Source: Aequorivita xiaoshiensis
GTDB taxonomy: Bacteria; Bacteroidota; Bacteroidia; Flavobacteriales; Flavobacteriaceae
DNA: 64,000 nt
Direction: 5' to 3'
Assembly: GCF_022008395.1 (NCBI RefSeq)
Contig: NZ_JAIRBB010000005.1
Coordinates: forward strand, 62,001 to 126,000
The notes under the pieces are model-generated. The model did no database searches, was not told the DNA's origin, and was given only the letters and a program-made list of their open reading frames with translations. The translations under genes were made by a program, and so were the position numbers. Of the stretch, positions 15,391-16,683 are shown piece after piece. Position 1 is the first letter of the stretch. The number at the start of each line of letters is the position of its first letter.

Positions 15391-15431
15391 ATGGATTATT
15401 TCCAAATTAATGGAAATAATCCATAGTTTTG
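15391..15431 (+). promoter_or_regulatory. 14-bp perfect palindrome overlapping the promoter of the Y-family polymerase/dnaE2 operon
   Basis: Arms ATGGATTATTTCCA (15391-15404) and TGGAAATAATCCAT (15411-15424) are exact reverse complements around the 6-nt spacer AATTAA. The final T of the right arm is the first base of TAGTTTTG (15424-15431), a full match to the Bacteroidota -7 element TAnnTTTG. The palindrome therefore occupies the -33 to -8 region, where a bound dimeric repressor would block RNA polymerase. The ATG of the polymerase gene lies 37 bp further on. This is a strong candidate for a damage-response operator. Confidence 0.75.
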
Positions 15432-15468: not shown

Positions 15469-16683
15469 ATGGAAAAGTCAATTTTACATTTAGATTTAGA
15501 TACATTTTTTGTTTCGGTAGAGCGACTTTTAGATAGTCGTTTATTGAAACGTCCTGTTCTAGTTGGTGGTATTGGGGATAGAGGAGTGGTTGCTGCTTGT
15601 AGTTACGAAACTAGAGGATTTGGAATACACTCCGGAATGTCGATGAAAATGGCAAGGCAGCTGTGTCCAGAAGCTATTGTTATAAAAGGAAATTCTAGCA
15701 CCTATATGAAATATTCGGATATGGTGACCGAAATTATAAAATCTCAAGTTCCCGTTTTTGAAAAAACTAGTGTAGATGAGTTTTACGCCGACTTAACGGG
15801 TATGGATCGTTTTTTTGGAAACTATAAATTTTCCAAAGAACTCCGACACACTATTATTAAAGAAACAGGCTTGCCAATTTCATTCGGCCTTTCCAAAAAT
15901 AAAGTGGTTTCTAAAGTGGCTACTGGAGAGGCAAAGCCTAATAATCAGATTAAAATTGATTCTGGTTTTGAGAAAGATTTTTTAGCTCCTCTTGCTGTTC
16001 GTAAAATCCCGATGGTGGGAAAAGTTACAAGTCAACAGTTGCGAAACTTGGGAATCCACGAAGTCCGCACCCTTCAGAATATGCCTGTAGAAATGTTGGT
16101 TTCGGTGTTGGGTAAAAACGGAAGACTTATTTGGAATAGAGCCAATGGTATTGATAAAACCCCAGTGGTGCAATATAGCGAACGAAAATCTATATCTACC
16201 GAACGAACCTTTGATAAAGATACCATAGACATTAAAAAACTTGAAGCTAGTTTAACTGCTATGGGGGAGACACTCGCTTATCAATTGCGGTTGGGCAATA
16301 AGCTTACAAGTTGTGTTTCGGTTAAAGTACGGTATTCAGATTTTAGCACTTATAGCAAACAATTAAAAATTCCTTTTACGAGTGCCGATCATATTTTAAT
16401 ACCGCTTATTCACAGTCTCTTTAATAAAATATATCAAAGGCGAATTTTGGTGCGATTAATTGGTGTTAATTTCTCACATCTTACTGGGGGGCATTATCAA
16501 ATAAACTTGTTTGACGACAATTTAAAGAATTTGAATTTATATGCATCACTCGATAAAATTAGAAATCGATTTGGCAGCGGAGCTGTAATGAGAGCTTCTA
16601 CGCTAGATGTAAAATCTATTCGTAGCAATCACAATCCTTTTAATGGCGAACCTCCTTTGTTGTTGGCACATAGAAAGCAATAA
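15469..16683 (+). CDS. dinB: Y-family translesion DNA polymerase (DinB/ImuB-like)
   Basis: A 404-aa error-prone polymerase. Catalytic motifs are present: DLDTFFVSVE (residues ~8-17) and TSVDEFYADLTG (~103-114), supplying the acidic metal-binding residues, and the steric-gate region CSYETRGFGI. Helix-hairpin-helix segments follow (GKVTSQQLRNLGI), then a little-finger domain. Q-I-N-L-F at residues 344-348 matches the beta-clamp-binding motif QxxLF. The stop TAA at 16681 is immediately followed by the ATG of the DnaE2-like polymerase, so the two are co-transcribed and probably translationally coupled. The catalytic residues look intact, unlike classical ImuB. Likely damage-induced via the upstream palindrome. 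Confidence 0.9.
   Translation: MEKSILHLDLDTFFVSVERLLDSRLLKRPVLVGGIGDRGVVAACSYETRGFGIHSGMSMKMARQLCPEAIVIKGNSSTYMKYSDMVTEIIKSQVPVFEKTSVDEFYADLTGMDRFFGNYKFSKELRHTIIKETGLPISFGLSKNKVVSKVATGEAKPNNQIKIDSGFEKDFLAPLAVRKIPMVGKVTSQQLRNLGIHEVRTLQNMPVEMLVSVLGKNGRLIWNRANGIDKTPVVQYSERKSISTERTFDKDTIDIKKLEASLTAMGETLAYQLRLGNKLTSCVSVKVRYSDFSTYSKQLKIPFTSADHILIPLIHSLFNKIYQRRILVRLIGVNFSHLTGGHYQINLFDDNLKNLNLYASLDKIRNRFGSGAVMRASTLDVKSIRSNHNPFNGEPPLLLAHRKQ

What the first reader, a model, noticed from the sequence alone, without database searches (positions are those of the whole stretch)
15391..15431. Perfect 14-bp palindrome overlapping the promoter of a Y-family polymerase/dnaE2 mutagenesis operon
Arms ATGGATTATTTCCA and TGGAAATAATCCAT are exact complements around 6 nt and run straight into the -7 element TAGTTTTG, so a dimer bound there would occlude the promoter. 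Classical LexA boxes are not described for Bacteroidota to my knowledge, and this block has no adjacent S24/LexA gene, which other flavobacteria often carry next to such operons. This may be the operator of an unlinked SOS-type repressor.
Basis: partly seen in the sequence, partly recalled or inferred. Interest (0 to 1): 0.75.

Follow-up and report, generated by a model that had tools for sequence, protein, structure and literature searches.

The report
Twin SOS boxes before mutagenesis genes
The palindrome is a pair of binding sites for an already described DNA-damage repressor of this bacterial group, set a fixed 19 bases apart in front of two error-prone polymerase genes, so it is mostly known biology with a tidy spacing rule that may be new.

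Summary
The perfect 14-bp inverted repeat is real but is better read as two GGA-N5-TCC boxes (15393-15403, 15412-15422), 19 bp apart. GGA-N5-TCC is the published box of the Flavobacteriaceae "non-canonical LexA", an S24 repressor (PMC8565304). The genome has one S24 gene, on another contig, with HTH_3, A-G site and Ser/Lys, and boxes in its own promoter. Other pairs precede published regulon genes. The exact mirror is not required: the sister species breaks it, and 4 of 32 orthologous pairs show it (3.5 on re-pairing). The 19-bp step is kept: 22 of 23 multi-box orthologous promoters have it, and 72 of the 75 AT-spaced pairs listed (of 92) in 148 family genomes lie at 18-23 bp. This suggests cooperative, CI-like binding of two dimers. 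Some Saprospiraceae keep the step with GTA-type boxes. No binding or expression was tested.

The parts
15391..15424 (.).
   Evidence: 0 in 30 dinucleotide shuffles of the window
15393..15403 (.). SOS box 1, GGATTATTTCC (GGA-N5-TCC), distal to the gene
   Evidence: sequence; pair kept in orthologous promoters
15412..15422 (.). SOS box 2, GGAAATAATCC (GGA-N5-TCC), 19 bp downstream of box 1
15424..15431 (+). Probable -7 element TAGTTTTG (TAnnTTTG), starting 1 nt after box 2; 12 of 23 orthologous 19-bp pairs have TAnnTTTG at this very offset
15469..16683 (+). Y-family DNA polymerase (DinB/ImuB type, 404 aa)
   Evidence: PF00817, PF11799, PF11798; over the NCBIfam cut-off for one DNA polymerase IV model, NF002677
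16684..19671 (+). DnaE-type polymerase III alpha, probably DnaE2 (995 aa), directly after the Y-family gene
   Evidence: PF07733, PF17657, PF14579, PF02811; over the cut-off of TIGR00594; 'DnaE2' is inferred from the operon

Best explanation
The palindrome is a two-box SOS operator of the published Bacteroidetes non-canonical LexA system. The unlinked S24 repressor encoded on contig C11 (255 aa) binds each GGA-N5-TCC box as a dimer. Two dimers sit 19 bp apart, about 1.8 helical turns, probably touching each other as CI-type repressors do. They cover the DNA just upstream of, and abutting, the -7 element, so RNA polymerase is kept off the dinB/imuB-dnaE2 promoter. After DNA damage, RecA filaments would trigger self-cleavage of the repressor at A105-G106, the boxes empty, and the error-prone polymerases are made. 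Shown here: the boxes, their conservation and spacing, the single unlinked repressor gene with its domains and cleavage residues, boxes at published regulon genes, and co-occurrence of repressor and boxes. Inferred from the published relatives: binding, repression, cleavage, induction. Inferred from spacing alone: cooperativity.
For: Each arm contains a whole GGA-N5-TCC box, the motif bound in EMSA by the Salegentibacter agarivorans regulator, whose predicted targets (recA excepted) are induced by mitomycin C (PMC8565304, sections read). One S24 gene in the genome: PF00717 + PF01381; A105, G106, S144 and K183 invariant in 29 aligned proteins. Boxes in its own promoter region: two exact and two with one mismatch, steps 22, 20 and 19 bp (read). 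Other own-genome pairs: exonuclease/GIY-YIG (19 bp), PA0069-type radical SAM (21 bp), UDG-linked radical SAM (19 bp, one mismatch), gene types that the paper lists. Orthologous promoters: 27 of 81 hold the box, 23 hold two or more, 22 of these 23 have a 19-bp step. Co-occurrence: of 59 relatives, 30 of 31 with a close S24 orthologue hold an AT-spaced pair, 0 of 28 without one do; by genus 4 of 4 against 0 of 24.
Against: No binding or expression data for this organism. 54 of 81 orthologous promoters show no exact GGA-N5-TCC within 300 bp (L071 has no upstream DNA, L085 254 bp), so the operator is not general to this polymerase. Of 23 searched named genomes without an exact box before the polymerase, 6 still hold a close S24 orthologue: L041, L055, L057 and L062 (Saprospiraceae) have diverged boxes, L056 only degenerate ones, and L022 stays unexplained. 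One relative with a close S24 orthologue, G159, has no listed pair. recA of this genome has no box in the 300 bp read, though S. agarivorans recA was not induced either. Single AT-spaced boxes are close to background: 55 against 44 for the reversed control. Pair searches with a free N5 were noisy (129 of 149 genomes matched, with frequent control matches); I turned to AT-only spacers after seeing that. The repressor model is of moderate confidence (pLDDT 71). Identity to the S. agarivorans protein was not measured.
Confidence: 0.92

Rival explanations
1. The 34-bp perfect palindrome is itself the functional unit: one large dyad-symmetric site for a single regulator complex, or a cruciform/hairpin.
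For: Exact 14-bp arms; strong predicted hairpin, z -6.2. Acinetobacter UmuDAb has a large palindromic operator for which two binding sites are proposed (PMC11332147, abstract read). Spacer bases match in mirror sense more than in direct sense: 0.57 against 0.49 in the polymerase group and 0.84 against 0.21 in the exonuclease group.
Against: Sister species A. sinensis (L018) breaks the mirror while keeping both boxes and the 19-bp step. Exact mirrors are 4 of 32 orthologous pairs against 3.5 expected on re-pairing and 0 of 5 dnaE2 pairs; that test cannot see a mirror common to a whole group, and the exonuclease pairs come almost wholly from one genus. Each half is a complete published box. The -7 element lies downstream, so the hairpin would not be in the transcript of this promoter.
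Confidence: 0.05
2. The 19-bp step is set by promoter geometry (one box per promoter element), not by contact between repressor dimers.
For: In 12 of 23 orthologous pairs TAnnTTTG starts at the same offset after box 2.
Against: In the other 11 of 23 it does not, and in the two Aquimarina promoters the match lies 19-20 bp further on, yet the step stays 19 bp. The same step occurs before exonuclease and stand-alone dnaE2 genes and in arrays of three or more boxes.
Confidence: 0.3
3. Another regulator, not the C11 S24 protein, uses these boxes here.
For: No direct binding data; some relatives encode several S24 proteins.
Against: Only one PF00717 match in this genome, its own promoter holds the boxes, and close S24 orthologues track the boxes.
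Confidence: 0.04

Closest known systems
Bacteroidetes non-canonical LexA, GGA-N5-TCC group (Sanchez-Osuna et al. 2021, PMC8565304; abstract, sections 12-16 and searched passages read)
   Same: Same box, same kind of repressor (HTH_3 + S24, A-G site, Ser/Lys), same target genes, box in the repressor's own promoter; the paper also notes two or more boxes in several promoters.
   Different: The main text has no 'cooperativ' and no remark on a fixed step between boxes among the passages found, and no mention of Saprospiraceae, Dyadobacter or Aequorivita. Its supplement, including Table S5 on multiple sites, was not seen.
Phage lambda CI operators (OR1-OR3), recalled
   Same: Arrays of short palindromic boxes about two turns apart; S24-fold C-terminal domain; the model matches LexA and lambda repressor structures.
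   Different: Steps here are 18-23 bp with 19 commonest; lambda's are about 23-24 bp (recalled). Cooperativity is not shown here.
Acinetobacter UmuDAb-DdrR operator (PMC11332147, abstract read)
   Same: Error-prone polymerase genes repressed through a large palindrome modelled as two binding sites.
   Different: Different repressor (UmuD-derived), a co-repressor (DdrR), and a central core that matters more than the arms.
Canonical LexA SOS box
   Same: Works alike: damage-cleaved S24 repressor on palindromic boxes at promoters of translesion polymerases.
   Different: No LexA winged-helix domain found in the repressor; different box.

Membership tests
Bacteroidetes non-canonical LexA regulon, GGA-N5-TCC group | GGA-N5-TCC box upstream of a DinB/UmuC-type polymerase gene | tested here: met
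   Two exact boxes starting 76 and 57 bp before the start codon
Bacteroidetes non-canonical LexA regulon, GGA-N5-TCC group | Repressor with HTH_3 (PF01381) N-terminus and S24 (PF00717) C-terminus | tested here: met
   P0001: both above Pfam cut-offs
Bacteroidetes non-canonical LexA regulon, GGA-N5-TCC group | A-G cleavage bond and Ser/Lys dyad | tested here: met
   A105, G106, S144, K183 invariant in 29 aligned proteins; which Ser and Lys form the dyad is inferred from their place in the S24 domain; function not assayed
Bacteroidetes non-canonical LexA regulon, GGA-N5-TCC group | Extra C-terminal helix | tested here: inconclusive
   Helix 233-254 in the model, but that stretch has pLDDT 45-65; paper's description
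Bacteroidetes non-canonical LexA regulon, GGA-N5-TCC group | Box in the repressor's own promoter | tested here: met
   GGATATATTCC and further boxes between the S24 and radical SAM genes
Bacteroidetes non-canonical LexA regulon, GGA-N5-TCC group | Published regulon genes carry boxes | tested here: met
   rSAM_link_UDG, PA0069-type radical SAM, exonuclease/GIY-YIG; recA not
Bacteroidetes non-canonical LexA regulon, GGA-N5-TCC group | Sequence grouping with S. agarivorans WP_075324850.1 | not tested
Bacteroidetes non-canonical LexA regulon, GGA-N5-TCC group | Specific binding, RecA-dependent cleavage, induction by DNA damage | not testable with these tools
   Needs EMSA, cleavage assay, RT-qPCR
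Canonical LexA | LexA winged-helix DNA-binding domain (PF01726) | tested here: not met
   P0001 matches HTH_3, HTH_19 and Peptidase_S24 only, at E up to 0.001

The most novel reading that the evidence does not exclude
The SOS operators of this repressor family are phase-locked, lambda-OR-like arrays: what separates a regulated promoter from the many stray GGA-N5-TCC sites is the 18-23 bp register (19 bp at polymerase and exonuclease promoters, 21 at PA0069-type radical SAM, mostly 18 plus 22-23 at the repressor's own promoter), read by cooperative dimers. The register has outlived a change of the box itself (GGA to GTA in Saprospiraceae), which goes with a change of the recognition helix from ADIERG to TEYERG.
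Probability: 0.5. Interest if true: 0.55.

Novelty: new member of a known kind. Interest (0 to 1): 0.38.

Why it matters
It places the mutagenesis operon of this flavobacterium under a described damage response and gives simple tests. If the register is the real specificity rule, SOS regulons of Bacteroidota can be predicted with far fewer false sites than with the single 6-base box: in this genome the AT-spaced single box is near background (55 against 44 for the control), while a search for the exact 19-bp pair at up to 1 mismatch gave 5 places, 3 of them at regulon promoters, against 0 for the control. The GGA-to-GTA shift offers a case of operator and repressor perhaps changing together.

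Tried and rejected
One large palindrome as the required unit: rejected because the exact mirror between the two N5 spacers is no commoner than on re-pairing (polymerase group 4 of 32, null mean 3.5; exonuclease group 6 of 15, null 5.8; dnaE2 group 0 of 5) and is broken in A. sinensis. Against this: position by position the spacers do match better in mirror than in direct sense (0.57 against 0.49; exonuclease group 0.84 against 0.21), and the re-pairing test cannot see a mirror shared by a whole group.

A different shared motif in orthologous promoters that lack GGA-N5-TCC: in 53 such promoters, perfect 4+4 dyads with N5 stood out over simple shuffles for TTTT (12), CAAA (6), TGAC (4) and GCTA (3) half-sites. 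TGACACAATGTCA-like sites (L074, L075, L082, L097) and GCTATATTATAGC (L086-L088) sit at similar places in what may be close relatives; not followed further. CTAA-N5-TTAG was found in 1 of 81 (L051). The diverged GTA-type boxes came from a mismatch scan of the 19-bp pair.

Single boxes as further regulon members: 53 of the 72 TGGA-N5-TCCA sites of the genome were read (the listing stops early): 48 were called inside reading frames and 5 not (the window's two, L014, L109, and L120 at a contig end without a gene call). One of the 48, in the S24 promoter, was called inside only because of over-long open frames; one search shows it lies between the genes. Nineteen further AT-spaced boxes, one in each of 19 of the 20 stretches, all lie in reading frames of 95 codons or more; the remaining boxes of the 55 were not all read.

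Pair search with free N5 in 149 family genomes: 129 matched, many places look like coding noise and the control often matched too, so later surveys used AT-only spacers, a choice made after seeing that output. In those the control matched once in 59 relatives (G195) and never in 148. Two listed pairs of relatives at 36 bp lie inside reading frames.

Sequence search of solved structures with the repressor: no match at E up to 0.001; the fold search then matched LexA and CI structures.

The by-genome association of repressor and boxes is dominated by one genus (28 of 59 genomes), so the by-genus count (4 of 4 against 0 of 24) is the fairer one.

Full report
OBSERVATION. The inverted repeat is exactly as described: arms 15391-15404 and 15411-15424, 14 nt, fully complementary, 6 nt apart. 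TAGTTTTG follows at 15424-15431, sharing one base with the right arm. Repeats of this size did not arise in 30 dinucleotide shuffles of the window, although the real window has six, the other five looking by eye like terminator hairpins. The genes behind it are a Y-family polymerase and a DnaE-type polymerase. The window is contig C54:62001-126000 of an 83-contig, 3.06-Mb genome; the nearest named relative by the Y-family protein is Aequorivita sinensis, 100% identical.

WHAT IT IS. Each arm contains a complete GGA-N5-TCC site: GGATTATTTCC at 15393-15403 and GGAAATAATCC at 15412-15422, first bases 19 bp apart. GGA-N5-TCC is the box of the Flavobacteriaceae branch of the non-canonical LexA proteins of Bacteroidetes (PMC8565304; abstract, sections 12-16 and searched passages read). 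That paper finds the box before DinB genes, often with the DNA polymerase III alpha gene in one operon, shows binding by EMSA and induction by mitomycin C (not of recA) in Salegentibacter agarivorans, and names SplB-type and UDG-linked radical SAM genes, a GIY-YIG/exonuclease gene and the repressor gene itself as further members.

THE REPRESSOR. The genome has one match to Peptidase_S24, on contig C11. Its product P0001 (255 aa) has HTH_3 and Peptidase_S24 above their cut-offs and no canonical LexA DNA-binding domain. In an alignment of 29 proteins from the fetched loci A105, G106, S144 and K183 are invariant. An AlphaFold2 model (mean pLDDT 71) has a helical N-terminus, an S24 domain and a low-confidence C-terminal helix 233-254, the last being a feature the paper reports. 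Fold search matches LexA and lambda/186 repressors; a sequence search of solved structures found nothing.

THE REST OF THE REGULON HERE. Between the S24 gene and a divergent radical SAM gene (TIGR03916, rSAM_link_UDG) lie GGATATATTCC and GGAAATAATCC plus two boxes with one mismatch, at steps of 22, 20 and 19 bp. A 19-bp pair precedes an exonuclease/GIY-YIG gene and a 21-bp pair precedes a PA0069-family radical SAM gene. recA has no box in the 300 bp read. Searched with the exact 19-bp spacing and up to one mismatch, the genome gives five places, three of them at these promoters and two elsewhere, against none for the reversed control. The single AT-spaced box is near background: 55 against 44, and 19 of 19 further boxes read lie in reading frames.

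CONSERVATION. Of 81 promoters (window plus the 80 best orthologous loci; L071 has no upstream DNA and L085 254 bp), 27 have GGA-N5-TCC within 300 bp, 23 have at least two, and 22 of these 23 have a 19-bp step; steps between neighbours were 19 (23 times), 22 (5), 23 (2), 41 and 133. These come from Flavobacteriaceae, Saprospiraceae, Dyadobacter and others. The 8-nt linker between boxes varies widely while its length does not. In relatives, AT-spaced pairs sort by gene: exonuclease 19 bp in 18 of 18; PA0069-type radical SAM 21 bp in 9 of 10; polymerase genes 19 bp in 18 of 25 (one of the 18, L250, is really before a UmuD-like gene), the other seven being one at 23 and six at 38-41, which in the loci read span a middle box with a non-AT spacer; the S24 gap 18-23 bp in 13 of 17, eight of them 23, and 40-41 bp in four. 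Eleven further 19-bp pairs include stand-alone dnaE2 genes. The pairs are not independent: most genomes are of one genus. In a draw of 148 genomes from the family, nearly all of different genera, 41 have an AT-spaced pair, 92 forward matches in all and none for the control; of the 75 pairs listed (33 genomes), 35 are at 19 bp and 72 at 18-23 bp, although 11-41 bp was allowed. The exact mirror between the two boxes is not required, though some mirror tendency exists.

REPRESSOR AND BOXES TOGETHER. I searched 22 of the 26 named genomes with a box before the polymerase (not those of L027, L028, L029, L046): all 22 hold a close S24 orthologue, E 2e-63 or better. Of 23 searched without an exact box, 17 hold none or only a distant one and 6 a close one. 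In 59 relatives, 30 of 31 with a close orthologue have an AT-spaced pair and 0 of 28 without; by genus 4 of 4 against 0 of 24.

A DIVERGED BRANCH. In 20 of the 80 loci a close S24 gene lies divergently just upstream of the polymerase gene. In some Saprospiraceae among them the boxes read GTA-N5-TAC or mixed forms at 19-bp steps: L062 at -105, -86, -67 and L041 at -81, -62, -43, with similar boxes near the S24 start in L055 and L057; L044 has mixed boxes at steps of 20, 20 and 19, L056 only degenerate ones, and L038 and L040 keep GGA pairs. The S24 proteins of L041, L055, L056, L057 and L062 (rows L195, L188, L193, L189, L187) have TEYERG where 20 other proteins of the alignment have ADIERG, VDIERG or VDLERG (19 of these from genomes where GGA boxes were seen, and L176 from the genome of L022); L192 and L194, from L044 and L035, are in between. 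This is one clade, so it is a lead and not proof of co-evolution.

MECHANISM. Most likely two repressor dimers fill the two boxes, probably helping each other, and block the promoter until RecA-stimulated self-cleavage removes them. Boxes, spacing, repressor and regulon are shown by sequence; binding, cleavage and induction are carried over from the published relatives; cooperativity is inferred from spacing. The alternative that spacing is set by promoter geometry remains open: TAnnTTTG begins at the same offset in 12 of 23 pairs.

NOVELTY. The system is known. I found no 'cooperativ' and no remark on a step between boxes in the passages of PMC8565304 that I searched, and no other paper with the motif string in the held library. 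The rows listed by searches (some lists were cut) show by title no later study of this operator; of these papers only the abstract of PMC11332147 was opened besides PMC8565304. The supplement of PMC8565304 was not readable here, and most subscription papers are not in the library. Hence: new member of a known kind, with an architectural rule that may be new.

Noticed in passing
L062, L041, L044, L055, L057 (S24-polymerase gaps): Saprospiraceae boxes read GTA-N5-TAC or mixed forms at 19-bp (partly 20-bp) steps; the proteins of L041, L055, L057, L062 (and L056) have recognition-helix residues TEYERG instead of ADIERG.
   Followed up: partly
G018, G026, G037, G050, G075, G086, G102, G103, G120: Triple operators with steps of 18 and 22-23 bp recur across genera; in the loci where the genes were checked (L167, L171) such arrays lie between the S24 gene and the UDG-linked radical SAM gene, and resemble a lambda OR layout.
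   Followed up: partly
L142, L161, L164, L231, L252: Stand-alone dnaE2-like genes in same-genus genomes start within about 10 bp of the nearer box of a 19-bp pair.
   Followed up: no
L250:1013-1044: A 19-bp box pair precedes a 124-aa UmuD-like gene (PF00717).
   Followed up: no
window 24554, 29841, 33559, 42777, 49629: Five other inverted repeats with arms of 14 bp or more that look by eye like terminators.
   Followed up: no
window, both strands: TAnnTTTG is rarer than chance: 64 matches against 98.5 expected, as if selected against outside promoters.
   Followed up: no
L022 5298-5936: A distant S24 gene (27% identity) sits divergently beside a polymerase gene without GGA boxes, while a close S24 orthologue lies elsewhere in that genome (G220).
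   Followed up: no
L074, L075, L082, L097 (about -160 to -170); L086, L087, L088 (about -35): Other perfect dyads recur before orthologous polymerase genes that lack GGA boxes: TGACACAATGTCA-like and GCTATATTATAGC; they may be clade-limited or coding.
   Followed up: no
G000:C11:636999-637787: recA of this genome lacks a GGA-N5-TCC box in the 300 bp upstream, so recA may lie outside this regulon here.
   Followed up: partly
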